The position numbers were made by a program, and so were the translations under genes. Shown here one piece after another: positions 7,692-63,223 of a stretch of 64,000 nucleotides of DNA (the first letter of the stretch is position 1; the number at the start of each line of letters is the position of its first letter). The notes under the pieces are model-generated. The model searched no databases. It worked only from the letters and a program-made list of their open reading frames with translations, and was not told where the DNA came from. The stretch is taken from assembly GCF_009908265.2 (NCBI RefSeq), contig NZ_JAAATX020000006.1:62001-126000 (forward strand). The letters run 5' to 3'. This DNA comes from Paragemmobacter amnigenus (lineage in GTDB: Bacteria > Pseudomonadota > Alphaproteobacteria > Rhodobacterales > Rhodobacteraceae).

Positions 7692-7813
7692 TTGGCGCCT
7701 ATCTTGCGTTGGTTTTGAGCAAGCCCCCAACATACGCGAAGGGGGTGGGATGGTCAAACCTTGCGGGTCCGGTGGTTAACGCTAGAGTCCCGACCGGAGA
7801 CCCCGGGGGAATC

Positions 7814-8242
7814 GTGGCTTACGTCAATATCCTGAAGCTTTGCGTCGGCGCGGACAGTGTCGAGGATCTGGTCGACTGGCAGGAGAGCCAGCGGCACAGA
7901 TGGCCGAAGGGCTGTGCGGTGCATGTGACGCGGATGTGGCCCAAGCGCGAGGCAGAGGTTCTGGCGGGCGGGTCGCTCTACTGGGTCATCAAAGGGGTCA
8001 TCCTTGCCCGCCAACGCATTGTCGGGCTTGAGAAAATCGATGGCGCGGACGGGGTGCAGCGCTGCGCGCTGGTACTGGACGCAGAGGTCATCCGGACCGA
8101 GGGCGCGGCGCGGCGGCCGTTTCAGGGGTGGCGCTATCTGGACCCTGCGGAAAGCCCGCGCGACCTGCCCAAGGGGCGCGAGCGCGAGGATGCGCTGCCG
8201 CCGGAACTGGCGCAGGCTTTGGCGGAAATCGGGCTGCGGTAG
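7814..8242 (+). CDS. DUF1489 family protein
   Basis: A 142-residue cytosolic protein starting at a GTG (MAYVNILKLCVGADSVEDL); the open frame extends further upstream, but the NILKLCVG block is the conserved family start. Motifs visible: LKLCVGADSVEDLVDWQ, WPKREAEVLAGGSLYWVIKGVILARQRI and FQGWRYLDPAESPRDLP near the C-terminus. The family is almost confined to alphaproteobacteria and its function is unknown; it is probably a small conserved housekeeping protein. It is divergent from nrdJ across about 120 bases and convergent with the small secreted protein gene. Confidence 0.8.
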   Translation: MAYVNILKLCVGADSVEDLVDWQESQRHRWPKGCAVHVTRMWPKREAEVLAGGSLYWVIKGVILARQRIVGLEKIDGADGVQRCALVLDAEVIRTEGAARRPFQGWRYLDPAESPRDLPKGREREDALPPELAQALAEIGLR

Positions 8243-17893: not shown

Positions 17894-19309
17894 ATGGCCG
17901 GGATTGCGTTTCTGCTCAATGGAACGCCGGTCCGCGTGGAGGGGGAGCCCCCGACGCGGACCCTTCTCGACTGGCTGCGCGAAGGGCGCGGTCTTTGCGG
18001 AACGAAGGAAGGCTGCAACGAGGGCGACTGTGGCGCCTGCACGGTGATGGTCACCGATGCGGGGGGGTCACGGGCGCTGAACGCCTGCATCCTGTTTTTG
18101 CCGCAGCTTGACGGCAAGGCGGTGCGGACGGTCGAGGGGATCGCGGGGCCGGATGGCGAAATGCATCCGGTGCAGGCGGCGATGGTGGCGCATCACGGGT
18201 CGCAATGCGGCTTCTGCACGCCGGGCTTCGTGGTGTCGATGGCGGTCGGTCACCTGAACGGGCGGCGGGATCATGACGACGTGCTGGCGGGCAACCTCTG
18301 CCGCTGCACGGGCTATGCCCCCATCATCCGCGCGGCCGAGGCCGTGGAAGGCGCGCCGGTGCCCGAATGGATGAAGGAGGATGCCGCCTTCATCTCGGCC
18401 CAAATACTCTCGGGGGGTGAGGCCGCAGGCCGAGGGGGGCAGACGGCCCCCCTGCCCGGCTTCCGCCCCGCGTCATCGGATGAACTGGCGGACTGGTATG
18501 TGCAGAACCCGGGCGCAACCCTGATCGCAGGGGCGACGGATGTGGGGCTCTGGGTGACCAAGGCGCTGCGCGACCTGTCGCCGGTGGCCTTCCTGAACGG
18601 CGTGACGGACCTGCAGCAGATCGAACGGCAGGGGGGCATGCTGCATGTGGGCGCGTGCGTCACCATCGCCGCGCTGCGCGAGGCGGTGGCGGAGCGGTTG
18701 CCGTCGTTTGGCGAGTTGCTGCGGCGCTATGCGTCGGAGCAGGTGCGGAATGCGGCCACCATCGGGGGCAACATCGCCAATGGGTCGCCCATCGGGGATG
18801 GTCCGCCCGCGCTGATCGCGCTGGGGGCCACGCTGCATCTGCGGCGGGGCGATGCGATGCGGTCGATCCCGCTGGAGGCGTTCTTCCTCGACTATCGCAA
18901 GCAGGATCGGCAGGCGGGGGAATTCGTGGCGGGGATCAGTTTCCCCGAAAGCGCGCCTGCCTTGCGCTGTTACAAACTGTCCAAGCGGTTCGATCAGGAC
19001 ATCTCGGCCGTCTGCGGCTGTTTCAACGTGACGGTGGGGGGCGGCCGCGTGACGGCGGCGCGGATCGCATTCGGCGGGATGGCAGGCATTCCGAAGCGGG
19101 CGGCGGCGGTGGAGTCGGCGCTGGTGGGGCAGCCGTGGACCGAGGCCACGATGCGCGCGGCGATGGCGGCCTTCGCGCAGGATTTCACGCCGCTGAGCGA
19201 TATGCGGGCCAGTGCGGGCTATCGGCTGGAGACGGCGGCGAACATGCTTCTGCGCTATTTCCATGAATTGAGCGGCGTGCCCGTCTCGGTTCTGGAGGTG
19301 CAGCCATGA
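17894..19309 (+). CDS. xdhA: Xanthine dehydrogenase small subunit (FeS/FAD)
   Basis: The electron-transfer subunit that passes electrons from the XdhB molybdenum site to NAD+. 471 residues. N-terminal [2Fe-2S] domain with [16 protein letters not shown] (about 36-51), second cluster [13 protein letters not shown] and [16 protein letters not shown] (about 112-150); FAD domain with [17 protein letters not shown] and [19 protein letters not shown]. The linker between them (about residues 165-187) is encoded by a copy of the dispersed GC-rich repeat, reading [18 protein letters not shown]. First gene of xdhABC; its stop overlaps the xdhB start (ATGA). Confidence 0.95.
18387..18453 (+). repeat. Dispersed GC-rich repeat, copy a, inside xdhA
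   Basis: Contains the family core CTCGGCCCAAATACTC, then a G-run and a hairpin with arms AGGGGGGC/GCCCCCCT (18433-18440 and 18446-18453). The first 29 bases are identical to the inverted copy at 24.3 kb. It lies in frame in the linker of XdhA. Confidence 0.75.
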
Positions 19310-21720
19310 GCATGGGCAAGCCCCTTCCCCATGATGCGGCCCCCCTGCATGTGACGGGTGTGGCGCGCTATGTGGATGACATCCCGCTCCCTGCGGGGGC
19401 GCTGCATCTGGCCTTCGGTCTGTCCACCGTCGCGCATGGCGAGATCGTATCGCTGGACCTGTCCGCCGTGCGCGCGGCAGAAGGCGTGGTGGCGGTGCTG
19501 TCGGCCGAAGATTTCGACGAGATGCCGGATTGCAGCCCGTCGGTGCATGACGAGCCTTTGCTGGCGATGGGTCGGGTGCATTACGTGGGCCAGCCGGTCT
19601 TCCTTGTCGCGGCGACCAGCCATCTGGCCGCGCGCAAGGCGGTGCGTCTGGCGCGGGTGGAGCTGCGGGAACTGTCCGCGCTTCTGACTGTCGATGACGC
19701 GCTGGCGGCGAACAGCCGGTTCGAGCAGGGGCCGGTGATCTGGACCAAGGGCGATCCGGCGGGGGCGCTGGCCAAGGCGGCGCGGGTGGTCGAAGGGTCG
19801 TTCGAGGTCGGCGGGCAGGAGCATTTCTATCTGGAAGGTCAGGTCGCCGCCGCCCTGCCGCAGGAGGGCGGGGATGTGGTCATCCAGTCCTCGACCCAGC
19901 ATCCGACGGAAATCCAGCACAAGGTCGCCCATGCCCTGCACCTGCCGATGAGCGCGGTTCGGGTGGAGGTGCGGCGGATGGGCGGCGGGTTCGGGGGCAA
20001 GGAAAGCCAGGGCAACGCCCTTGCCATTGCCTGCGCCGTGATGGCGGTGCGGACGGGGCGGGCCTGCAAGATGCGCTATGACCGCGATGACGACATGGTC
20101 ATCACGGGCAAGCGGCATGACCTGCGGATCGTCTACCGCGCGGGGTTTGACGGGCAGGGCCGCGTGACGGGGCTGGAATTCAAGCATCTCTTCCGCTGCG
20201 GCTGGGCGCAGGACCTGTCGCTGCCGGTAGCGGATCGGGCGATGCTCCATGCGGACAATTGCTATCACCTGCCGGACATCCGGATCGAAAGCCACAGGTT
20301 GCGGACCAATACCCAGAGCGCGACGGCCTTCCGCGGCTTTGGCGGGCCGCAGGGGATGGTGGGGATAGAACGGGTGATGGATCACATCGCCCACGCCCTG
20401 GGCCGTGATCCGCTGGAGGTGCGGCGCGCGAATTTCTATCGCGCGATGGCCGCGGCCCCGGGGGTTTCACCCCCGGACCCCCAAGGTATCTTGCCCGAGA
20501 CGAAGGAGGGGGTCGATCTGGCCTCGCGCGGGGCGGCGGTTCCGGTGGGGTCGCATGCGCTGCCGACGGACGGGCCGGTGCAGACGACGCCCTATCACAT
20601 GCCGGTCGAGGATTTCGCGGGGCATGAGCTGGTGGCGGAGCTGGTGCGGTCGTCGGACTACGTGGCGCGGCGGGCGGCGATTGCGGAATGGAACCGTGGC
20701 AGCCCCGTCCTGAAGCGGGGGATCGCGCTGACGCCGGTGAAGTTCGGGATTTCCTTCACGCTGACGCACCTCAATCAGGCGGGGGCCTTGGTGCATGTGT
20801 ATCAGGACGGGTCCATCCAGTTGAACCATGGCGGGACCGAAATGGGGCAGGGTCTGTTCCAGAAGGTCGCGCAGGTGGTGGCGGGGGTGTTCGGGGTCGA
20901 TCCGGCGGTGGTGAAGATCACGGCGACGGATACGGGCAAGGTGCCCAACACCTCGGCCACGGCGGCATCGAGCGGGTCGGACCTGAACGGGATGGCGGCC
21001 AAGGCGGCGGCGGAGGTGATCCGCGGGCGGCTGGCGGCCTTCATCGCGGAAAAGCATCAGGTGAAGCCCGCGGCGGTGAAGTTCGTGGATGGCATGGTGC
21101 GCGTGGCGGGCGAGGAATATGATTTCGCCCGTGTCGCGGGTTGGGCCTATCAGGCGCGGGTGTCGCTGTCGTCGACCGGGTTCTATGCGACGCCCAAGAT
21201 CGTGTGGGACCGGATGCGCGGGGTGGGGCGGCCGTTCTTCTACTTTGCCTATGGCGCGGCGGTGACCGAGGTGGTGATCGACACGCTGACGGGCGAGAAC
21301 CGCATCCTGCGGGCGGATTTGCTGCATGACACGGGGAGCAGTCTGAATACCGCGCTGGATATCGGGCAGGTGGAAGGCGCCTATGTGCAGGGTGCGGGCT
21401 GGCTGACGACGGAAGAGCTGGTCTGGGACGGCAAGGGGCGGCTGGCGACGCATGCGCCGTCGACCTACAAGATTCCCGCCTGTTCGGACCGGCCGCGGGT
21501 GTTCAACGTGGCGCTCTGGGGGCGGCCCAACCGCGAGGAGTCGGTGGGGCGGTCCAAGGCGGTGGGCGAGCCGCCCTTCATGCTGGGGATATCGGCGCTT
21601 TATGCGCTGTCCGATGCGGTGGCGGCCTGTGGCGACGGGTCGGTCTATCCGTCGCTGGATGCGCCCGCGACGGCAGAGCGGGTGCTGGCGGCGGTGAAGC
21701 GGGTGCGCGGGGATGCGTGA
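19306..21720 (+). CDS. xdhB: Xanthine dehydrogenase large subunit (molybdenum)
   Basis: Oxidises hypoxanthine to xanthine and xanthine to urate at a molybdopterin centre. 804 residues. Seen: [24 protein letters not shown] (Moco contact), [21 protein letters not shown] with the substrate-contact Arg, [37 protein letters not shown], and the catalytic Glu in [19 protein letters not shown]. Near residues 384-402 the sequence [18 protein letters not shown] is the translation of a dispersed repeat copy; it sits in a proline-rich stretch that makes the subunit longer than the roughly 777 residues I recall for Rhodobacter capsulatus XdhB. Start ATG at 19306; a second ATG two codons later is possible. 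Confidence 0.95.
20456..20512 (-). repeat. Dispersed GC-rich repeat, copy b, inside xdhB
   Basis: A 57-base (19-codon) segment with hairpin arms CCGGGGG/CCCCCGG around TTTCA at 20458-20476 and, on the minus strand, CTTCGTCTCGGGCAAGATAC, a diverged form of the family core. Orientation is opposite to copy a. The reading frame passes through it without interruption. Confidence 0.65.
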
Positions 21721-24283: not shown

Positions 24284-24340
24284 CCCCGGGGGCCGTCAGC
24301 CCCCGGACCCCCGAGAGTATTTGGGCCGAGATGAAGGGGG
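24284..24340 (-). repeat. Dispersed GC-rich repeat, copy c
   Basis: Fills the gap between the ABC ATPase and first permease genes. Hairpin arms CCGGGGG/CCCCCGG (24286-24306), then the inverted core GAGTATTTGGGCCGAG. Its plus-strand end GATGAAGGGGG is positioned as the Shine-Dalgarno sequence of the permease start at 24347. Confidence 0.75.
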
Positions 24341-41358: not shown

Positions 41359-44300
41359 ATGGCGACGACCGGCGCGGACCTGATTTTCGGGACGGACAAC
41401 AACGACGTGATCGCCGGTTTGGCGGGAAGCGACACGCTTTACGGCGGCCCGACCTCGCTCTCGGCGGGACTGGGGGATGACACCCTGTCTGGCGATGACG
41501 GGACTGACAGGCTTTTCGGCGGCGCTGGCAATGATGTCCTGACGGGAGGGGCCGGGGCGGATACGCTGGATGGCGGGGCGGGGAATGACACGCTGCGTGG
41601 CGATGTCGCGGCGGGGTCCGAATTCGACGACAGTTTCGGAGAGACTGACACGCTGCATGGCGCGGATTCGCTTATCGGCGGGGGTGGCGCGGACCTGATC
41701 ATCGGTGGCGGCGGCGCGGACAGCCTGTTTGGCGGGGATGGCGCGGATACGCTCTATGGCAATGCTGGCAGCGACCAGTTGCAGGGCGGCGACGGCGACG
41801 ACGACCTCTATGGAGGCAACGGCAATGATACGCTTGTTGCGGGGGCAGGCGATGACGTGCTGTACGGTGGCGCTGGTGGCGACTCGCTTTCGGGCGAAGG
41901 CGGCAATGACTCGATCTATGCCGGCGATGGGAATGACACGCTTGCAGGCGGATTGGGCGACGACCTGCTGGATGCAGGGTCGGGCAGCGACACGGTCTTT
42001 GGCGGCTTTGGCAATGATTTGATCTACGGCGACGACTCGGTCGGGGGCAGCGCGGATTCCATCGACGCGGGCGACGGCAGCGACATCGTCTATGCAGATG
42101 GCGGAAACGACACCGTCATCGGCGGAGAGGGGAACGATTACATCGACGGCGGCGAGGGAGCCGACTCGCTGACCGGCGGGGTCGGGATGGATTCGCTTTC
42201 TGGAGACGACGGGGCAGACCGACTGTTCGGTGGCGCTGCGAATGACTACATTTATGGCGGGAACGGCAATGATTTCATCGAAGGCGGCGATGGCGATGAT
42301 GTCCTGACTGGAGGGCTCGGTGATACCTCCAATTCCACCCTTGCCGGGGGCAATGCCAACGACACGATGTTCGGCGGGGCTGGGAATGACGAAATCCATG
42401 GCGGCAGCGGCAGTGACAGCATTGACGGCGGGACGGGCAATGACTGGATAAATGGCGCTGACTTCCTCAATCCCTCCTTGGACGGGCGGGATACGCTTCT
42501 GGGCGGGGATGGCGACGACACGATCACCGGCGGCAGTCTTGCCGATGTCATCGACGGCGGGACGGGAAATGACGTCATAGAGGCCGGAGACGGCAACGAT
42601 GTGTCCATCCGCGGCGGGGCCGGTCATGACGATATCTCGGGCGGGGCGGGCCATGATTCATTGCAGGGCGAGGCGGGCAACGATCGGCTGGACGGTGGCG
42701 CGGACAACGACACGCTGCTGGGCGGGGACGGCAACGACAGGCTGATCGGCGGAACGCAGCGGGACAGCCTGATCGGGGGGGCCGGTTCGGATATCCTGTT
42801 CGGCGACCGCGATCTTTCCAGCCCGGATGTGCAGCTTGTCAGTGACGAGATGAACGACACGCTCGACGGCGGCGCGGGCGATGACGCGCTGTTCGGCGAC
42901 GCAGGCAATGACAGCCTGCTGGGCGGTGACAACTCGGATATTCTGGTCGGCGGGTCCGGTCAGGACAAGCTGCTGGGCGGCGCGGGCAATGACGTGCTTC
43001 ATGGCGATCTTGTCGAACTCGGGTCTGGCAGCCTGTCCTTGGATGCGCTTTTTGCGAATTTGCTGCGGCTGAACGAGACCGGTGAGGACGGGAATGACGA
43101 ACTTCTGGGGAATGGCGGCGACGATCTGATCATCGGCCATGGCGGCAATGACGTGATCGACGGCGACGACCTGAACGGTGCAGGGGTCGGCAATGACACG
43201 ATCTTCGGCGGGGGCGGCGATGACGTGATCCGCGGCGGCGGCGGGAATGACCTGATCTTTGCCGATGGCGGGAAAGACCAGTCCTTCGGCAATGCGGGGA
43301 ATGACACGATCTTTGCCGGTAGCGGGAACGGGCAGGATACCGTCTTTGCCTATGGCGGCGATGGCGCGGATGAAATCTTCGGCTTTGACCCGTCTTTCAA
43401 TGGTTCGGGCCACTACGAACTGCGCGGCGGCTTGGGGAATGACACGATCTATGCGGGCTGGATGGATTCCGGCAACAAGCTGTTCGGCGAAGGCGGCGAC
43501 GACCTGCTTTATGCCAATGGCAACAGCACCCTCGAAGGCGGCGATGGTGCCGATACGTTGGTCGCGGCCTATGGCAGCGTTCTGGATGGCGGCGCGGGGC
43601 GGGATATCATCTTCATCCAGTCCGGCACGACCGATACGGTGATCCGCAATTACTCGGCCGCGGATGATATTCTGGTGATCGAGGCGGGCGATTACGCGGT
43701 GCTGAGCGTCACCGAGAGTGGTGGAAATACGATCATCAAGATCGGGGAGCAAACCATCGCCACGCTGATCGGATTTGACTGGAACAATGGCGTCATTGAT
43801 CCGCTGGCACCGTTGTCGACAGGACAGGTGCGGTCGAACCTGAAGATCGCCCTTGCGGGCGCGCAGCCGACCCTTGGCACGGGCAACGACACCTATGCCG
43901 GAACCATGGGTGACGACACGATCTATGGCGGGGACGGCAACGACACCCTGCGGGGCGATTTCGGCGATGACACGATCGAAGGCGGCAATGGCAATGACCA
44001 GTTGTTCGGTGGCTTTGGCGATGACACCATCCGTGGCGGAACGGGCAATGACAGCATTGACGGCGGCGCGGGGCATGACAGCCTGCGGGGCAATTCGGGC
44101 AACGACACCATCTTCGGCGGGGCCGGAGATGACTCGCTTGCCGGGGGTGACGGCAATGACAGCGTGACCGGCGGCACCGGAGACGACACGCTGGGCGGCG
44201 GCACGGGCAACGATACCCTGTCGGGCGACGATGGTCTGGACGAGATTTTCGGCGATGAGGGGCGCGACTCGATCTCGGGCGGGGCGGGCAATGACACGCT

Positions 44301-46794
44301 GGACGGCTGGACGGGCAATGACACGATCCAGGGCGGCGATGGCGATGACCTGATCTTTGGCGGACCGTCACCGAACGCCGAACTTTCGGGCGCCATCGAA
44401 CGGGATGACGACCTGCTGCGCGGCGGAAACGGGAATGACTATATCCTGGGCCACGGCGGCAACGACACGCTGGAGGGCGAGGCCGGAAACGACACGCTGG
44501 AAGGCGGGGCCGGTTTCGACAGCCTGCTGGGCGGGACCGGCGATGACGAGCTTGTGGGCGGCGATGGTGCCGACATGCTCAAGGGCGAGGCGGGGAACGA
44601 CTCGCTCTATGGCGACAGTGGGCCCGAGAGCCTGCATCGCGGGCAGGACACGCTGGAAGGCGGCGACGGGCATGACTCGCTGGTCGGCGGCGGCGGGCGT
44701 GACGTGCTTTATGGCGGGACAGGCAATGATTTCCTGAAGGGCGACTGGTATCCGAACGCAGGCCAGTTTGAAGACGACCTTATCTGGGCCGCCGGTGCCG
44801 ACACGCTCTTCGGCGGGGACGGGGATGACACGATCGAGGGCGTCTATGGCAACGACCTTGCCTATGGCGGCATCGGCAACGATTCATTCTGGGCCGATGA
44901 CGGGCAGGACACGCTTTATGGCGATGCAGGGAACGACATCCTTGAAGGTGGCCGTGGCGACGACAGCCTGTTCGGCGGCGACGGCGAGGATGAACTCTTC
45001 GGCGACAAGGGCGACGACGTCTATGACGGCGGCGCGGGCCATGACCTTCTGAGCGACTGGGACGGCCACAACGTCATGAACGGCGGTGCGGGCAATGACA
45101 CGGTCTTTGGCGCAGGCGGCGGCGAGGATACCATCGCAGGCGGGGATGGCGCGGATTTCCTGAACGGCAACGGCGGTGACGACAGCATCACGGGCGATGC
45201 GGGTGCCGACAATCTGCGTGGCGGTGGCGGCAACGACCGGCTGGATGGCGGTGCCGACAACGACATGATCTATGACGGAAGCGGCGACGACACGCTGATC
45301 GGCGGCGCGGGGGATGACGAGCTGTTCATGTGGAACGGGACCGACGTCGCCTTTGGCGGTGACGGGGCCGACAGCTTCTACTTTGGCGCGCGCGGCGATG
45401 CGGCCTTCGGGGGCGGCGGGACCGACAGCTTCTTCCTGTGGCCGGCAATCGATGGCGAGGTCTATATCGAAGGCGGTGACGCAGCAGACCTGACGGTGAT
45501 CGAGAATACCGGTGCCACCAACAGCAAGGTGATCTTCGCCGACTTCAACCCTGCAGGCGGCGATGCGATCCGCGTCATCGACTATGACTTCACGGCAACG
45601 CAGGACGGCCTGACCGGCGCCCCCCTGACGGCGGCGATTGCCGGATGGAGAGGCGGGCTGACCATCGACAGCTTCGATGACTCCTATCTGGTCGTCACGA
45701 TTGGCGGCAGCGGCATAGAGCTCCACTTCCCGACGATCAGCGTGACCTCGCCGGAATCGGTCATCAACGCCATCCTTGCGGCGATCACCCCCGTCGGCAA
45801 CACCGAGCGTCTGGGCAGCGATCTGGCCAATGATACGATCAACGGTACCGCGGGCTATGACGCCCTCTACGGACTGGCCGGAAATGACAGCCTGTCGGGC
45901 AATGACGGCCATGACGAGCTTTACGGCGGGATCGGCAATGACACGCTGTCAGGCGGCAACGGCTGGGATTTCCTTGACGGCGGCGACGGCAATGACAGCC
46001 TTGTGGGCGGGGCCGGAGGCGACACGCTTGTTGCCGGCAACGGCAACGACACCATGACCGGCGGAAGCGGATCGGACCTGTTCGTCTGGGACATCCGCCG
46101 CGAAGGGGCAAAGACCATCACGGACTTCGCGCCCAACATCGACACCCTGCGCGTCGTCGTGGGGGTGGACTTTGACCCCGACATCCTCGACTCGGCCGTC
46201 CGGATCGTGGGCGGGAACACGGTGGTGGGCGACAGTTTCGCATCGCTGACCGTGACCGGCGTGGGCAGCCTTGTGCAGATGGGTGATCTGAACGTCCAGA
46301 TTGCCGTCGAAGGCAGCGAAGAGAGCGAGTCCATTGTGGGCTTTTCGAATCTTTCCGAGGAGATTCGAAACAACCTGCTGTTCGGGATGGGCGGAGACGA
46401 CGCGCTGGTCGGCGGCGACGATGGCGACGACACGATCTATGGTGGCGACGGAAACGACACCATCGACTCCAACGGCGGCTGGTGGAACGAGCTTTATGGC
46501 GGGGACGGCGACGACACCCTGTATCTGAGCGGCGACGGCTTGATGGAAGGCGGCGCGGGCCGCGATACCTTTGTCTTTACGCGCTCAGAGTTTGGCTACG
46601 CCTATGGGGAAGTGACCGACTTCGACCAGAGGAGTGACTGGATCGTCATCGACAATCCGGACTTGACGATAGATGATCTGTACTTCGAAACCTCCAGCGA
46701 CGGCACCTTGATTTTCTGGGGTGATGGCGAGATCTGGGTTGCTGGCAAGACGCCAGCAGATTTGACACCGCGGATCGTGTTCGACGTCGATTGA
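41359..46794 (+). CDS. Giant RTX calcium-binding repeat protein
   Basis: 1811 residues of mostly GGxGxDxUx nonapeptide repeats (GGAGNDTLxGG type), each pair forming a calcium-filled parallel beta-roll. No Sec signal; such proteins are exported by a type I system using a C-terminal signal. Two or three non-repeat islands break the roll, near residues 770-835 (DIIFIQSGTTDTVIRNYSAADD...) and about 1360-1480 (FADFNPAGGDAIRVIDYDF). The C-terminal DTFVFTRSEFG and DFDQRSDWIVIDNPDLTID part resembles the RTX cap before the secretion signal. A GGGAG site precedes ATG 41359. No catalytic domain was recognised, so an adhesin or surface-layer role is as likely as a toxin. No type I secretion genes are in the window. 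Confidence 0.9.
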   Translation: MATTGADLIFGTDNNDVIAGLAGSDTLYGGPTSLSAGLGDDTLSGDDGTDRLFGGAGNDVLTGGAGADTLDGGAGNDTLRGDVAAGSEFDDSFGETDTLHGADSLIGGGGADLIIGGGGADSLFGGDGADTLYGNAGSDQLQGGDGDDDLYGGNGNDTLVAGAGDDVLYGGAGGDSLSGEGGNDSIYAGDGNDTLAGGLGDDLLDAGSGSDTVFGGFGNDLIYGDDSVGGSADSIDAGDGSDIVYADGGNDTVIGGEGNDYIDGGEGADSLTGGVGMDSLSGDDGADRLFGGAANDYIYGGNGNDFIEGGDGDDVLTGGLGDTSNSTLAGGNANDTMFGGAGNDEIHGGSGSDSIDGGTGNDWINGADFLNPSLDGRDTLLGGDGDDTITGGSLADVIDGGTGNDVIEAGDGNDVSIRGGAGHDDISGGAGHDSLQGEAGNDRLDGGADNDTLLGGDGNDRLIGGTQRDSLIGGAGSDILFGDRDLSSPDVQLVSDEMNDTLDGGAGDDALFGDAGNDSLLGGDNSDILVGGSGQDKLLGGAGNDVLHGDLVELGSGSLSLDALFANLLRLNETGEDGNDELLGNGGDDLIIGHGGNDVIDGDDLNGAGVGNDTIFGGGGDDVIRGGGGNDLIFADGGKDQSFGNAGNDTIFAGSGNGQDTVFAYGGDGADEIFGFDPSFNGSGHYELRGGLGNDTIYAGWMDSGNKLFGEGGDDLLYANGNSTLEGGDGADTLVAAYGSVLDGGAGRDIIFIQSGTTDTVIRNYSAADDILVIEAGDYAVLSVTESGGNTIIKIGEQTIATLIGFDWNNGVIDPLAPLSTGQVRSNLKIALAGAQPTLGTGNDTYAGTMGDDTIYGGDGNDTLRGDFGDDTIEGGNGNDQLFGGFGDDTIRGGTGNDSIDGGAGHDSLRGNSGNDTIFGGAGDDSLAGGDGNDSVTGGTGDDTLGGGTGNDTLSGDDGLDEIFGDEGRDSISGGAGNDTLDGWTGNDTIQGGDGDDLIFGGPSPNAELSGAIERDDDLLRGGNGNDYILGHGGNDTLEGEAGNDTLEGGAGFDSLLGGTGDDELVGGDGADMLKGEAGNDSLYGDSGPESLHRGQDTLEGGDGHDSLVGGGGRDVLYGGTGNDFLKGDWYPNAGQFEDDLIWAAGADTLFGGDGDDTIEGVYGNDLAYGGIGNDSFWADDGQDTLYGDAGNDILEGGRGDDSLFGGDGEDELFGDKGDDVYDGGAGHDLLSDWDGHNVMNGGAGNDTVFGAGGGEDTIAGGDGADFLNGNGGDDSITGDAGADNLRGGGGNDRLDGGADNDMIYDGSGDDTLIGGAGDDELFMWNGTDVAFGGDGADSFYFGARGDAAFGGGGTDSFFLWPAIDGEVYIEGGDAADLTVIENTGATNSKVIFADFNPAGGDAIRVIDYDFTATQDGLTGAPLTAAIAGWRGGLTIDSFDDSYLVVTIGGSGIELHFPTISVTSPESVINAILAAITPVGNTERLGSDLANDTINGTAGYDALYGLAGNDSLSGNDGHDELYGGIGNDTLSGGNGWDFLDGGDGNDSLVGGAGGDTLVAGNGNDTMTGGSGSDLFVWDIRREGAKTITDFAPNIDTLRVVVGVDFDPDILDSAVRIVGGNTVVGDSFASLTVTGVGSLVQMGDLNVQIAVEGSEESESIVGFSNLSEEIRNNLLFGMGGDDALVGGDDGDDTIYGGDGNDTIDSNGGWWNELYGGDGDDTLYLSGDGLMEGGAGRDTFVFTRSEFGYAYGEVTDFDQRSDWIVIDNPDLTIDDLYFETSSDGTLIFWGDGEIWVAGKTPADLTPRIVFDVD

Positions 46795-54916: not shown

Positions 54917-54970
54917 CCATTTTCCGTCCACAAATATCCCGGGGGGTGCGGGGGGCTGGCCCCCCGCGGC
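54917..54970 (+). repeat. Dispersed GC-rich repeat, copy d
   Basis: In the gap between ureidoglycine aminohydrolase and allA: CCATTTTCCGTCCACAAATA, then CCCGGGGGG and a hairpin with 8-base arms GCGGGGGG/CCCCCCGC around CTGG. Closest to copy e. Confidence 0.75.
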
Positions 54971-58742: not shown

Positions 58743-59705
58743 TTACCCCTTCATCCAAGGCAGCTTGTCCAGATCCACATTCCCGCCGGTCAGGATCACC
58801 CCGACCCGCTTGCCCCGGAACCGGTCCGGGTTCTTCAGGATCACCGCCAGCGGCACGGAACAGCTGGCCTCGATCACGATCTTCATCCGCTTCCAGTGCA
58901 GCTTCATCGCCTCCACGATCTCGTCCTCGGTCGCGGTCAGGACATCGGTCGCGTAGGTCTTCACGAAATGCCAGGTCAGCTCCTTCAGCGGCACCTTCAA
59001 CCCGTCGGCCACCGTGTCGGGCGCATCATCCGCGATGATGTGGCCCGCGCGGAAACTGCGCGCCGCGTCATCGGCATTCACCGGCTCGGCGGCAAAGATC
59101 TCCACCTTCGGCGCGATGGCGGACAGGGTCAGGCAGGTGCCGGAAATCATCCCGCCCCCGCCGATGGGGGCCACCACGGCCTCCAGCCCCTCCACCTGCT
59201 CCATCAACTCGCGCGAGCAGGTCCCCTGCCCCGCGATGACGCGCGGGTCGTTGTAGGGATGCACGAAATCCGCCCCCGTGCGCGCCTGCACCTCGGCAAA
59301 GACCGCCTCGCGGCTGCTGGTCGACGGCTCGCATTCCACGATCACCCCGCCATAGCCGCGCACCGCATCCTTCTTGGCCTGCGGCGCCGTGCGTGGCATC
59401 ACCACCGTGCAGGGTATCCCCCGCCGCCCCGCCGCATAGGACAGGCTCAGCGCATGGTTCCCGCTGCTATGGGTGGCAACCCCCCGCTCCAGCTGATCCT
59501 CGCGCAACCCGAAGACGGCGTTCGACGCCCCCCGCACCTTGAACGCGCCCGCCTTCTGGAAGTTCTCGCATTTGAAGAACAGCTCCGCCCCCGTCAGCTC
59601 GTTCAGGAACGAAGACGTCAACACCGGCGTGCGGTGGATATAGGGCCTGATCCTTTCATGCGCCGCGACCACATCGTCATAGGTCGGCACCACCATCTCT
59701 GCCAT
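58743..59705 (-). CDS. bhcB: Beta-hydroxyaspartate dehydratase
   Basis: 320 residues from MAEMVVPTYDDVVAA. A PLP enzyme of the threonine dehydratase/serine racemase family: CENFQKAGAFKVRGA with PLP lysine K56, SSGNHALSLSYAAGRRGIP, and the phosphate loop PIGGGGMISGTCL. In the cycle it removes water from beta-hydroxyaspartate to give iminosuccinate. By itself it could be taken for serine/threonine dehydratase; order bhcA-B-C-D supports the assignment. Upstream gap contains repeat copy e. Confidence 0.9.
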   Translation of the reverse strand: MAEMVVPTYDDVVAAHERIRPYIHRTPVLTSSFLNELTGAELFFKCENFQKAGAFKVRGASNAVFGLREDQLERGVATHSSGNHALSLSYAAGRRGIPCTVVMPRTAPQAKKDAVRGYGGVIVECEPSTSSREAVFAEVQARTGADFVHPYNDPRVIAGQGTCSRELMEQVEGLEAVVAPIGGGGMISGTCLTLSAIAPKVEIFAAEPVNADDAARSFRAGHIIADDAPDTVADGLKVPLKELTWHFVKTYATDVLTATEDEIVEAMKLHWKRMKIVIEASCSVPLAVILKNPDRFRGKRVGVILTGGNVDLDKLPWMKG

Positions 59706-59720
59706 GTCGCGCACCCCTGC

Positions 59721-59776
59721 CTCCATTTTCCGTTCCCAAATATCCCGGGGGTCCGGGGGCTGGCCCCCGGTCCCGC
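59721..59776 (+). repeat. Dispersed GC-rich repeat, copy e
   Basis: In the 79-base gap between bhcA and bhcB: CCATTTTCCGTTCCCAAATA, CCCGGGGG, and a hairpin CCGGGGG/CCCCCGG around CTGG (59753-59770). Nearly the same as copy d. Confidence 0.75.
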
Positions 59777-59784
59777 CGCATCCG

Positions 59785-60975
59785 TCATTCCGCCGCCATG
59801 GCCATGGGCGCGGCCGACCCGCGATAGAACTCCGCCGCCGCCGCCACACCCGATCCCAGCCGCACGCCCCAGCCCAGATCGGCCATGCACATCTCGGCCG
59901 TCGCAAGGCCCCCCAGCACCATCACATCCGTCAGCATCCCCAGATGCCCGATGCGGAACACCTTGCCCGCCACCTCGCCCAGTCCTACACCGAAGGCCAC
60001 GCCGTATTTCTCGGCCGCCAGCTTCACCAGATCGGTCCCGTTGCACCCCGCAGGCACCACCACCGCCGTCACCGTGTCGGAACAAAGATCCGCCGACGCC
60101 GCGCAGGGCCGCATCCCCCAGGCCGCCACCGCGCGCCGCACCCCTTCGGCCAGCCGCGCATGGCGGGCATAGACGGCCTCCAGCCCCTCGTCCTCCAGCA
60201 TCTCGATGGACTTCGCCAGGCCCGCAATCAGCCCTACCGCGGGCGTGTAGGGATACCCCCCCGCCGCATAGCCCTTCAGCATGTCGCGGAAATCGAAGAA
60301 GGTCCGCGCCATCCGCGCCCCCTCCATCGCGGCAAGGGCCTTGTCCGACACGCCAAGGATCGCCAGACCGGCCGGCAGCATGAACCCCTTCTGGCTGCCC
60401 GCCACGGCGATATCCACACCCCAACCGGCCATGTCGAACGGCATCGACCCGATGGACGACACCCCGTCCACGAACAGCATCGCCCCATGCCCCGCCGCAT
60501 CCATCGCCCGCCGGATGCCACCGATATCCGACCGCACACCCGTCGCCGTCTCGTTATGGGTCGCCAGAACCGCCTTGATCCGCCCGGCCCCATCAGCCCG
60601 CAGCGCCGCCTCGATGGCGGCGATCGGCGCGCCCTGCCCCCAGGGCGTCTCGATGATCTGCACCTCCAGCCCGTGGCGCTGGCACAGGTCGATCCAGCGG
60701 TGGCTGAACATCCCGAACCGCGCGGCCAGAACCGTATCGCCGGGCGACAGGGTGTTGGTGATCGCGGCTTCCCATCCCCCCGTGCCAGTGGACGGCAGGA
60801 TGATCACCTCGCCCCCCTCCATCCGCAGCACGCGCCGCACCCCCGCCACCGCCGGACGGAACAGCCGCCCAAAGGCCGCCGAACGATGGTCGATCGTCGG
60901 CATGTCGCAGGCCTTGCGGATCACCTCGGGGATGTTGGTCGGACCGGGAATGAAGACGGGATTCTGGAAGGACAT
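59785..60975 (-). CDS. bhcA: Aspartate:glyoxylate aminotransferase
   Basis: 396 residues. A serine-glyoxylate aminotransferase-like PLP enzyme: GPTNIPEVIRKACDMPTIDHRSAAFGRLF, ILPSTGTGGWEAAITNTLSPGD, ATHNETATGVRSDIGGIRR, DGVSSIGSMPFDM and the PLP lysine K196 in AGSQKGFMLPAGL. In the cycle it converts glyoxylate to glycine using aspartate as amino donor, producing oxaloacetate. First gene of bhcABCD, preceded by GGAG and divergent from bhcR. It could be mistaken for a phosphonate or photorespiratory enzyme, but the cluster decides. Confidence 0.92.
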   Translation of the reverse strand: MSFQNPVFIPGPTNIPEVIRKACDMPTIDHRSAAFGRLFRPAVAGVRRVLRMEGGEVIILPSTGTGGWEAAITNTLSPGDTVLAARFGMFSHRWIDLCQRHGLEVQIIETPWGQGAPIAAIEAALRADGAGRIKAVLATHNETATGVRSDIGGIRRAMDAAGHGAMLFVDGVSSIGSMPFDMAGWGVDIAVAGSQKGFMLPAGLAILGVSDKALAAMEGARMARTFFDFRDMLKGYAAGGYPYTPAVGLIAGLAKSIEMLEDEGLEAVYARHARLAEGVRRAVAAWGMRPCAASADLCSDTVTAVVVPAGCNGTDLVKLAAEKYGVAFGVGLGEVAGKVFRIGHLGMLTDVMVLGGLATAEMCMADLGWGVRLGSGVAAAAEFYRGSAAPMAMAAE

Positions 60976-61126: not shown

Positions 61127-61939
61127 ATGCCCACAAAACCCCGTGGCCGCCCCAAGGCCTTCCACGACAAGACCGACCAGAACACCGTCCAGGCGCTCGA
61201 CCGCGCGCTGGGCCTCCTCTCCACCCTCGCCGCCCATCCGGGCCTGACGCTGTCGGAACTGGCCGAAACCTCCGGTCAGGCCGTCGCCACCGTCTTCCGC
61301 GCCCTCGTCACCCTGCAATCGCATGGGATGGTGGAAGTGGAGGAGCCCGGTCAGGTCTGGCACATCGGCCCTGCCGCCTTCCGCGTCGGCACCGCCTTCC
61401 TGCGCCGGACCAAGGTCGTCGAACGCGCGCGGGGGCCAATGGACCAGCTCATGCGCGACACCGGCGAAACAGCCAATCTGGGGGTCGAGGTGGGGGATGA
61501 AGTCCTTTTCCTCAGCCAGGTCGAAACGCACGAGGCGATCCGCGCCTTCTTCCCCCCCGGGACCAAGGCGCCCATGCATGTCTCGGGCATCGGCAAGGCG
61601 CTGCTCGCCTGGTATCCCGAGGACAAGGTCAGGGGCATCCTGTCGCGCAAGGGGATGGAACGCTTCACCACCCTCACCCACACCTCGGACAGCGCGCTGT
61701 TGCGCGACCTTGCCCGCACGCGCGAACGCGGCTTTGCCATCGACGATCAGGAACGCGCCGAAGGGATGCGCTGCGTCGCAGCCCCCATCTTCAACGCCCA
61801 TGGCGAACCCGTCGCGGGCCTGTCGGTCAGCGGCCCCGCCTTCCGCATGGCGCTGTCCGACGCCGCCCGCCTTGGCGCCCTCGTCCGCGCCGCCGCGGAT
61901 CGGGTGACCGAGGCGACGGGCGGCGAAAGACCCGCCTGA
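61127..61939 (+). CDS. bhcR: IclR-family regulator of the bhc genes
   Basis: 270 residues from MPTKPRGRPKAFHD. Helix-turn-helix: VQALDRALGLLSTLAAHPGLTLSELAETSGQAVATVFRALVTLQSHGMVE. The C-terminal effector domain (about 85-265) contains ETANLGVEVGDEVLFLSQV, APMHVSGIGKALLAWYP, and GMRCVAAPIFNAHGEPVAGLSVSGPAFRM, typical of IclR. In Paracoccus, BhcR controls the bhc operon and responds to glyoxylate. It is divergent from bhcA; its stop is directly followed by repeat copy f. Confidence 0.88.
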   Translation: MPTKPRGRPKAFHDKTDQNTVQALDRALGLLSTLAAHPGLTLSELAETSGQAVATVFRALVTLQSHGMVEVEEPGQVWHIGPAAFRVGTAFLRRTKVVERARGPMDQLMRDTGETANLGVEVGDEVLFLSQVETHEAIRAFFPPGTKAPMHVSGIGKALLAWYPEDKVRGILSRKGMERFTTLTHTSDSALLRDLARTRERGFAIDDQERAEGMRCVAAPIFNAHGEPVAGLSVSGPAFRMALSDAARLGALVRAAADRVTEATGGERPA

Positions 61940-62012
61940 TTTCATCTCGGCCCAAATACTCGCAGGGGGAGAGGGGCGCGCGCGCCCCTCGGGGGGCGGC
62001 AGCCCCCCCTTT
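61940..62012 (+). repeat. Dispersed GC-rich repeat, copy f
   Basis: Directly after the bhcR stop: TTTCATCTCGGCCCAAATAC, TCGCAGGGGG, then two hairpins, GAGGGGCGCG-type and GGGGGGC/GCCCCCC around GGCA (61991-62008). The last is followed by TTTCG and may also terminate bhcR. Confidence 0.75.
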
Positions 62013-62050: not shown

Positions 62051-63223
62051 TTATTGCAGGTCGCGGAACGCCGCCTGCATCCGCGCCACCGCCTCCTCCA
62101 CCATCGCGCGGGGGGCGGCGATGTTGAACCGCAGGAAGCTTTCCCCGCCCGCCCCGAAGCTCGACCCGTGGTTGGTGGCGATCTTCGCCTCCTTCTCGAC
62201 CCGCGCGATGAATTCCGCCGCGTCCATCCCCGTGCCGGAAAAATCCAGCCAGGCCAGATAGGTCGCCTCCAGCGGCATGGACCGCAGCCCCGGAATGGCC
62301 GCCATCCCCGCATCGAAGACCCGCCGGTTCCCGTCCAGATAGGCCATCAGCGCATCCACCCATGCCGCGCCTTCGGGCGAATAGGCCGCCGTCGCCATGT
62401 GCATCCCGAAACTGTTGCCCGAAATGCCCAGCGCCATGATCTTCGCCGCGAACTTCCCCCGCAGCACGGGGTCCGCGATGATGACATTGCCCGTATGGCT
62501 GCCCGCGATGTTGAAGGTCTTGGTCGTCGCCGTCATCATCACCAGCCGGTCCGCGATATCCGGCGCGGCCAGCGGCATCGGCACATGCGTCTGCCCCGGA
62601 TAGACCAGATCATGGTGGATCTCGTCCGAGACGAGGATCAGGTCATGCCGCTTGCAGAACTCCGCCACCCCGCGCAGCTCGGCCGCCGTCCAGACCCGCC
62701 CGCCGGGATTGTGGGGCGAGCAGAGGATGAACATCCGCTCTGTCCCCGTCATCATCGCGTCCCAGCCGTCGAAATCCATCTCGTAACGGCCATCCACCAC
62801 CGCCAGCGGACATTCCCGCACCTCACGCCCCGCCGCTTTGATCGTGCGGGCAAAGGCGTGATAGACCGGCGTCGTCAGCACCACCGCATCCCCCGGCGCG
62901 GTGAACGCCTCCAGACACAGCCCCGTGCCATTCACCAGACCGTGGGTGGTGAAGATATCCCCCGTCTCGACCGACCAGCCGTGGCGCGTTTGCATCCACC
63001 AGCGGATCGCCTCCAGATAGGCGCTGTCATCCCCGAAATAGCCATAGACCCCATGCGCCGCCATCCGGTCCACCGCCGCCTGCACGCAGGCCGGCGGGCG
63101 GAATTCCATGTCCGCCACCCACATGGCAAGCCCGCCCTCGGCAGGGACGCCATAGTACTTCTCCATCATGTCCCATTTCACGCAATGGGTGCCGATGCGG
63201 TTGATCGGGGTGTCGAAGTCCAT
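62051..63223 (-). CDS. patB: MalY/PatB-type cystathionine beta-lyase/aminotransferase
   Basis: 390 residues. PLP fold type I of the MalY/PatB kind: MWVADMEFRPPACVQAA, GVYGYFGDDSAYLEAIRWWM, CSPHNPGGRVWTAAEL, VSDEIHHDLVYPG, and the PLP lysine K235 in TATTKTFNIAG. C-terminal ATYLAWLDFSG and NHGSSFGAGGESFLRFNIAAPR. Such enzymes cleave the C-S bond of cystathionine or cysteine conjugates. It stands alone next to the bhc genes; a link to glyoxylate is not evident. Convergent with bhcR. Confidence 0.88.
   Translation of the reverse strand: MDFDTPINRIGTHCVKWDMMEKYYGVPAEGGLAMWVADMEFRPPACVQAAVDRMAAHGVYGYFGDDSAYLEAIRWWMQTRHGWSVETGDIFTTHGLVNGTGLCLEAFTAPGDAVVLTTPVYHAFARTIKAAGREVRECPLAVVDGRYEMDFDGWDAMMTGTERMFILCSPHNPGGRVWTAAELRGVAEFCKRHDLILVSDEIHHDLVYPGQTHVPMPLAAPDIADRLVMMTATTKTFNIAGSHTGNVIIADPVLRGKFAAKIMALGISGNSFGMHMATAAYSPEGAAWVDALMAYLDGNRRVFDAGMAAIPGLRSMPLEATYLAWLDFSGTGMDAAEFIARVEKEAKIATNHGSSFGAGGESFLRFNIAAPRAMVEEAVARMQAAFRDLQ

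What the first reader, a model, noticed from the sequence alone, without database searches (positions are those of the whole stretch)
20456..20512. A dispersed repeat is translated as part of XdhB
A 57-base (19-codon) copy of a GC-rich repeat, with its hairpin (CCGGGGG/CCCCCGG), lies inside xdhB and is read as [18 protein letters not shown]. The same repeat occurs between genes elsewhere in the window. It keeps the frame, and XdhB is longer here than the roughly 777 residues I recall for the R. capsulatus protein, in just this region. This resembles the protein-coding palindromic elements (RPE) of Rickettsia, but in a Rhodobacteraceae enzyme. It may add a surface loop between domains of the molybdenum subunit.
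Basis: partly seen in the sequence, partly recalled or inferred. Interest (0 to 1): 0.72.

Follow-up and report, generated by a model that had tools for sequence, protein, structure and literature searches.

The report
Intergenic repeat translated inside xanthine dehydrogenase
A short hairpin repeat that bacteria of the Rhodobacter family carry in many copies, nearly always between genes, also sits inside both genes of xanthine dehydrogenase and is read there as linker sequence, in dozens of genera and with frequent loss and replacement.

Summary
Window 20458-20505 (+), 16 in-phase codons of xdhB (residues 385-400), matches a covariance model of 29 other copies from this genome (E 1.8e-10). 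The ~52-nt repeat has over 100 copies here, occurs in 95 of 120 family genomes and is nearly absent elsewhere in the class.

Beyond the finding:
(1) A second copy lies antisense in xdhA (18388-18450), in the Fe-S/FAD linker.
(2) The repeat is almost purely intergenic. Of 122 copies classified here 3 are inside genes: xdhA, xdhB, bchB. In another genus 1 of 76 is, again xdhB.
(3) It recurs across the family: 89 of 174 XdhB loops, all sense, and 66 of 162 XdhA linkers, all antisense. Presence turns over: in the same genus 9 of 17 loops have it and 8 are 9-13 residues long. R. capsulatus XdhB (1JRO) seems to hold a remnant.

It works like a Rickettsia palindromic element or an intragenic REP but fails membership tests for both. 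Most likely it is a REP-like, 3'-of-gene element tolerated, and repeatedly renewed, at permissive interdomain linkers of one enzyme.

The parts
20458..20505 (+). Repeat copy translated in XdhB (codons 385-400, [16 protein letters not shown]), in the linker between MoCoBD_1 and MoCoBD_2
   Evidence: R1 38.8 bits, E 1.8e-10; Pfam domain limits; frame
18388..18450 (-). Second coding copy: repeat antisense inside xdhA, about residues 165-186 (around [20 protein letters not shown]), in the linker between Fer2_2 and FAD_binding_5
   Evidence: R1 36.8 bits, E 7.7e-10; inside predicted gene; Pfam 79-148 / 190-352
20506..20580 (+). Rest of the XdhB interdomain loop ([25 protein letters not shown]), variable, not repeat
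   Evidence: loop comparison
17894..19309 (+). xdhA, xanthine dehydrogenase small subunit
   Evidence: ORF, Pfam Fer2, Fer2_2, FAD_binding_5, CO_deh_flav_C
19306..21720 (+). xdhB, xanthine dehydrogenase Moco subunit, 804 aa
   Evidence: ORF, Pfam, homologue of 1JRO chain B
24286..24336 (+). Intergenic copy between an ABC-transporter ATPase gene and a permease gene
   Evidence: R1 51.4 bits; gene limits; Pfam of neighbours
54918..54967 (-). Intergenic copy
   Evidence: R1 46.9 bits; genes end 54910 / start 54984
59724..59770 (-). Copy between two minus-strand genes (3-nt overlap with one)
   Evidence: R1 49.6 bits; genes 58743-59726 and 59785-60975
61940..61990 (-). Intergenic copy between convergent genes
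   Evidence: R1 31.3 bits; genes 61127-61939 (+) and 62051-63223 (-)

Best explanation
The segment is a copy of a Rhodobacteraceae-specific, REP-like dispersed element: ~52 nt, a G/C hairpin followed by ACCCCC, a covarying triplet and TATTTGG...GATGAAG. The element normally lies between genes, typically within a few tens of nucleotides of a stop codon (shown), and probably acts or persists as a transcribed structure 3' of genes (inferred). Copies inside genes are rare (shown), presumably because most are purged (inferred). The interdomain linkers of XdhB and XdhA are exceptional permissive sites where an element with open reading frames is read through as variable linker without harm to the folded domains (position shown, tolerance inferred). 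A copy was probably acquired early in the family. It has since been inherited, decayed, deleted and renewed, by new insertion or by conversion from other genomic copies, many times (turnover shown, exact mechanism inferred).
For: Repeat identity. Copy number: 64 pattern matches, 0 in the control; 153 model matches at E<=1, 122 of them at E<=1.3e-5. Family restriction: 95 of 120 family genomes including this one; in a class-wide set of 115 only this genome and 3 with one weak match each. Intergenic habit: of 122 own-genome copies 117 intergenic, 2 at gene edges, 3 inside (third is BchB); in another genus 75 of 76 intergenic, the one inside being xdhB. Placement: convergent pairs 35 against divergent 6, window background 7 against 8; the upstream gene's 3' end faces the element in 79 of 117, median 22 nt. 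Family-wide coding copies: XdhB loops >=8 bits in 96 of 194 loci against 0 of 1164 reversed or codon-shuffled controls, highest control 7.8; 89 of 174 after removing duplicates, all sense; XdhA linkers 66 of 162 against 2 of 972 controls, all antisense. In the one-per-genome family set: XdhB 39 of 90, XdhA 21 of 87, either 48 of 87. Turnover: 41 changes on the loop-free XdhB tree (200 shuffles: minimum 49, mean 58), so heritable but labile; same genus 9 of 17 loops with it (one at only 8.0 bits), 8 with loops of 9-13 residues; in L091/L093/L094 the repeat follows the DLTSRGA segment, in L032, sister of L094, it precedes it; L118 and L097 (694 of 747 aligned residues identical) carry different repeat subtypes. 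The three own-genome hosts carry it between Pfam domains.
Against: If linkers in general tolerate it, more host genes would be expected; only xdhA, xdhB and bchB were seen among 122 copies, so something special to XDH is not excluded. A copy on a Paracoccus plasmid lies inside a MOSC domain, not between domains. One fixed orientation per gene argues for one old insertion, or homologous renewal, over many free insertions. No transposase was identified. The AlphaFold model is poor overall (mean pLDDT 58.6), so 'flexible' rests on sequence and length variability. No expression or protein data.
Confidence: 0.72

Rival explanations
1. The copies in xdhA and xdhB are kept by selection because the hairpin in the mRNA, or the encoded linker, does something useful at the domain boundary, for example pausing the ribosome between domains during cofactor loading or setting subunit expression.
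For: Both subunits of one enzyme are hosts, both at domain boundaries, at least one copy in 48 of 87 family genomes; hairpin arms stay complementary in many coding copies whose amino acids differ (seen by eye); xdhB is the only intragenic host among 76 copies in another genus.
Against: 8 of 17 readable same-genus loops are only 9-13 residues, and 54 of 162 loci have neither copy at 8 bits; RNA folding energies of the xdhB and xdhA copies are no better than shuffles (z -0.60 and -0.52).
Confidence: 0.17
2. A single ancestral insertion in each gene, inherited vertically and merely eroded, with no later insertion or conversion.
For: Same orientation in all 89 XdhB and all 66 XdhA cases; presence clusters on the tree relative to shuffles; eroded forms such as GASGGDISAKMK.
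Against: Copies with strong scores to a model built in another genus (L094 55.8 bits, L113 54.9); a different place in the loop in L094 and in its sister L032; different subtypes in close relatives.
Confidence: 0.08
3. Chance resemblance of GC-rich coding sequence to a GC-rich repeat.
For: Element and genome are both GC-rich; the loop is rich in Pro, Gly and Ala.
Against: 0 of 1164 codon-shuffled or reversed loops reach 8 bits, though the highest reaches 7.8; E 1.8e-10; one orientation only.
Confidence: 0.01
4. A true member of a known class: RAYT-dependent REP or Rickettsia palindromic element.
For: Palindromic, high copy, 3' of genes, occasional in-frame copies in ORFs, as described for REPs.
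Against: No conserved GTAG or CGTC at the stem foot; no PF01797 match in this genome, 12 of 120 in the family; length and intragenic share unlike RPE.
Confidence: 0.02

Closest known systems
Rickettsia palindromic elements (RPE)
   Same: Palindromic repeat found in frame in protein-coding genes; same class of bacteria (the latter recalled).
   Different: RPE ~150 bp and nearly half of the first set in ORFs of unrelated genes (passage of PMC10969869); here ~52 nt, 4 of 198 classified copies intragenic, and the same two linkers of one enzyme reused across a family.
REP elements (GTAG and CGTC super-families; PMC3733652)
   Same: Small palindromes in high copy, mainly between convergent or unidirectional genes, close to 3' ends, some inside ORFs (section 15 read).
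   Different: No conserved GTAG or CGTC tag, no Y1 transposase found in this genome; longer conserved 3' tail with a covarying triplet. The paper's main text has no occurrence of Rhodobacter, Paracoccus, Roseobacter or Ruegeria.
Intragenic REPs in Xanthomonas recB
   Same: Different REPs at about the same site in the same gene of related species.
   Different: There two species and one gene; here two subunit genes in dozens of genera, in opposite orientations.
Rhodobacter capsulatus xanthine dehydrogenase (1JRO, 2W3R)
   Same: Orthologue; chain B residues 383-399 (GGLSAPPSPPEPIATKK) align with repeat-encoded GGLSAPPGPPEDISRQK of Gemmobacter caeni L106.
   Different: Shorter loop (777-aa protein); its DNA was not examined, nor whether the loop is ordered in the crystal.

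Membership tests
REP (GTAG/CGTC) | Short palindrome in high copy, intergenic, 3' of genes | tested here: met
REP (GTAG/CGTC) | GTAG or CGTC tetranucleotide at one end of the palindrome | tested here: not met
   no such conserved tetranucleotide at the stem foot in 31 aligned copies
REP (GTAG/CGTC) | Associated Y1 tyrosine transposase (RAYT, PF01797) | tested here: not met
   0 in own genome and same-genus G104; 12 of 120 family genomes
Rickettsia palindromic element | Present in frame in conserved protein genes | tested here: met
   in-frame copies in xdhB, xdhA, bchB; translation itself not measured
Rickettsia palindromic element | ~150 bp unit, large share of copies in ORFs of unrelated genes | tested here: not met
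   ~52 nt; 3 of 122 and 1 of 76 copies inside genes; definition
Rickettsia palindromic element | Sequence homology to a known RPE family | not tested
   no RPE sequence was fetched
Known structured RNA (Rfam 15) | Match above a family's gathering score | tested here: not met
   0 matches in the window, gathering threshold only

The most novel reading that the evidence does not exclude
Xanthine dehydrogenase of the Rhodobacteraceae is a family-wide landing pad for a structured, RNA-like repeat: both subunit genes keep, lose and re-acquire copies at their domain boundaries, in opposite orientations, because the hairpin (perhaps with an H-type pseudoknot) or the linker it encodes affects co-translational folding, cofactor loading or xdh mRNA. 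This would be a dispersed repeat under recurrent selection as part of one enzyme.
Probability: 0.2. Interest if true: 0.85.

Novelty: new variant of a known kind. Interest (0 to 1): 0.62.

Why it matters
Repeats translated into proteins are best known from Rickettsia (recalled). Here, in free-living bacteria, an element that is otherwise nearly all intergenic has entered the same two linkers of a conserved, crystallised enzyme and turned over there in dozens of genera. It gives a natural experiment (empty, filled, eroded and refilled sites, some within one genus) for how dispersed DNA becomes protein, and suggests that the R. capsulatus XDH structure already contains such a segment. The element itself, with a covarying triplet suggestive of a pseudoknot and no transposase found, was not described in any paper found by the searches made (open-licence papers only).

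Tried and rejected
Tried without result: Rfam on the window at gathering thresholds (no match); scan of viral contigs with XdhA (nothing encoding a relative); Y1/RAYT transposase as the mobiliser (none here); AlphaFold2 of XdhB from 49 close homologues (mean pLDDT 58.6: residues 379-438 are low, but so are many others, so it carries little weight; no fold search was run on it); RNA folding energies (z -0.77 for an intergenic copy, -0.60 xdhB, -0.52 xdhA, -2.14 for 24284-24340).

Literature: I saw the search listings (searches returned no paper); none of the listed titles or abstract starts describes this repeat or repeats in XDH. Read: section 15 and passages of PMC3733652; passages of PMC10969869.

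Considered and rejected: chance similarity; a clade-private insertion; the idea that R. capsulatus XdhB lacks the segment.

Against or limiting: in the covariation test two of five measures (pairs with changes on both sides; further pair types) do not exceed the shuffles, and the copies are related. The highest loop control is 7.8 bits, just under the 8-bit cut; at 12 bits the counts are 82 of 194 loci (76 of 174 after removing duplicates) for XdhB and 62 of 162 for XdhA, with no control reaching it. The XdhB samples are not random: best 80 of 572 confirmed hits; 90 of 149 family genomes, the top 30 plus 60 picked by hand mainly from the higher scores; and the genus. One search read 194 of 197 loci; one search then dropped 19 duplicates and one short row (L318). 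XdhA linkers could be read in 162 of 174. R1 was run on 100 of the 110 XdhB loci then held. Of 153 own-genome matches the 122 best were classified by a home-made codon-model gene finder trained on the window and also used on G051. In G051 a weaker XdhA copy (R1 17.8 bits, profile 15.0 bits) fell below the cut, so it is not among the 76. Counts per genome are capped by the tool. BchB linkers were judged by eye: 8 of 17 readable in the genus look repeat-derived.

Full report
What is there. xdhB runs 19306-21720 (+) and encodes 804 residues. Codons 385-400 (20458-20505) read [16 protein letters not shown] and form a copy of a dispersed repeat. I aligned 29 other copies from the same genome, built a covariance model R1 and searched the window: the xdhB copy scores 38.8 bits, E 1.8e-10.

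The repeat. Consensus CCGGGGG-loop-CCCCCGG-ACCCCC-NNN-GGATATTTGGG..GATGAAG or ..GGAAAATG. A 24-nt pattern with up to 3 mismatches gives 64 matches in the 4.14-Mb genome against 0 for the reversed pattern; R1 gives 153 matches at E<=1. Three bases of the hairpin loop covary with the three bases after ACCCCC: 88% of cells pair and compensatory changes occur at all three pairs; for hairpin and triplet together, paired cells drop from 90% to at most 60% when partners are slid. This is the pattern of an H-type pseudoknot in RNA (or a single-strand DNA contact). The copies are related, two of the five measures do not exceed the shuffles, and simple folding energies are mostly not unusual, so the pseudoknot is a suggestion. 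R1 hits 95 of 120 family genomes, this one included, while of 115 genomes drawn from the class only this genome and three others match, the three with one weak match each. Among plasmid records the repeat is found in Paracoccus, Gemmobacter, Fuscovulum, Sagittula and Thalassococcus, with one match in the actinobacterium Paraoerskovia at E 0.02.

Where copies lie. With a codon-model gene finder, 117 of the 122 best own-genome copies are intergenic, 2 at gene edges and 3 inside genes: xdhA, xdhB and bchB. The window is 90% coding, so genes are strongly avoided. Convergent flanking pairs (35) far exceed divergent ones (6), against 7 and 8 in the window's gene order, and the 3' end of the upstream gene faces the element in 79 of 117 cases at a median of 22 nt, much as described for REP elements. 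In another genus (G051) 75 of 76 copies are intergenic and the one inside a gene is in xdhB; a weaker XdhA copy there fell below the cut.

Position in the proteins. In XdhB the insert lies between MoCoBD_1 (146-377) and MoCoBD_2 (446-730); in XdhA between Fer2_2 (79-148) and FAD_binding_5 (190-352); in BchB between Oxidored_nitro (1-390) and PCP_red (461-505). A MOSC-domain protein on a Paracoccus ferrooxidans plasmid also carries a copy (APGVSHPRTPVGYLENG), there inside the MOSC domain rather than between domains.

Family comparison. The XdhB loop between NFY and the QTTPYHM region is 4 to 83 residues long in 194 loci. A nucleotide profile of the own-genome copies scores >=8 bits in 96 of 194 loci (89 of 174 after removing duplicates) and in 0 of 1164 reversed or codon-shuffled controls, the highest control being 7.8; the 89 are all sense. 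XdhA linkers: 66 of 162 against 2 of 972 controls; the 66 are all antisense. Both copies occur together in 40 of 162, neither in 54. In the set of one locus per family genome, nearly all of different genera, XdhB carries it in 39 of 90, XdhA in 21 of 87 and at least one in 48 of 87. None of these samples is random. R. capsulatus XdhB (1JRO) has GGLSAPPSPPEPIATKK where Gemmobacter caeni L106, whose DNA matches R1 at 40.4 bits, has GGLSAPPGPPEDISRQK, so the known crystal structure probably includes a remnant; its DNA was not examined.

Turnover. On a loop-free XdhB tree presence/absence needs 41 changes; 200 label shuffles need at least 49, mean 58 (FastTree, many weak forks). In the window's genus 9 of 17 readable loops carry it (one only at 8.0 bits) and 8 have loops of 9-13 residues; two more genomes could not be read. 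In Pseudotabrizicola L091, L093 and L094 the repeat sits after the DLTSRGA segment, while in L032, sister of L094 (693 of 747 aligned residues identical), it sits before it; L118 and L097 (694 of 747) carry different repeat subtypes. Fresh insertion or conversion by another genomic copy is the simplest reading. bchB shows the same kind of presence and absence within the genus (by eye).

Mechanism. Shown: repeat identity, frame, domain-boundary position, intergenic habit, recurrence across the family, turnover. Inferred: that gene copies are purged by selection, that the linkers tolerate the insert, and that it is mobile or converted today. Not known: what moves it. PF01797 transposases were not found in this genome and were found in 12 of 120 family genomes. 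The fixed orientation in each gene suggests one early insertion with homologous renewal more than free insertion.

Comparison with the known. It works like RPE (in-frame palindromes in genes; passage) and like intragenic REPs, for which reuse of about one site in recB of two Xanthomonas species has been noted. It fails two tests for membership in GTAG/CGTC REPs (tag, transposase) and differs from RPE in size and in the share of copies in ORFs. I found no paper on this repeat in the searches listed, which cover open-licence papers only.

Noticed in passing
window 24286-24336, and genome-contig loci at about 7789-8158: R1 matches (E up to 0.4) lie at about the same distance downstream of xdhB as the window's ATPase/permease copy in 21 of the 100 loci searched (many loci do not reach that far), so some intergenic positions may be conserved across genera; neighbours were not checked.
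   Followed up: no
L025:1487-1538 (own genome C1:308732-308783): High-scoring copy (73.9 bits) read in frame in BchB (light-independent protochlorophyllide reductase) before the PCP_red domain; present or absent among same-genus BchB proteins.
   Followed up: partly
L370:1501-1540: Copy translated inside the MOSC domain of a YiiM-like protein on Paracoccus ferrooxidans plasmid pFER4; like XDH possibly a molybdenum-cofactor-related protein (recalled), n = 1.
   Followed up: partly
own genome: Copies are skewed to one strand of the contigs as held (47 reverse, 17 forward by pattern; 76 and 46 of the 122 model matches), unexplained; may reflect contig orientation.
   Followed up: no
A2 columns 11-13 with 28-30: Hairpin-loop triplet covaries with the triplet after ACCCCC (TGC/GCA, CAC/GTG, GAC/GTC, TCC/GGA), suggestive of an H-type pseudoknot in the intergenic element.
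   Followed up: partly
XdhB loops, e.g. L033, L117, L106: A second recurrent loop module, GTGHR(Y/F)GGxHSP, occurs with or instead of the repeat in several genera; origin unknown.
   Followed up: no
window 41359-46794: Predicted gene with many 27-nt-spaced repeats, RTX-like by appearance.
   Followed up: no
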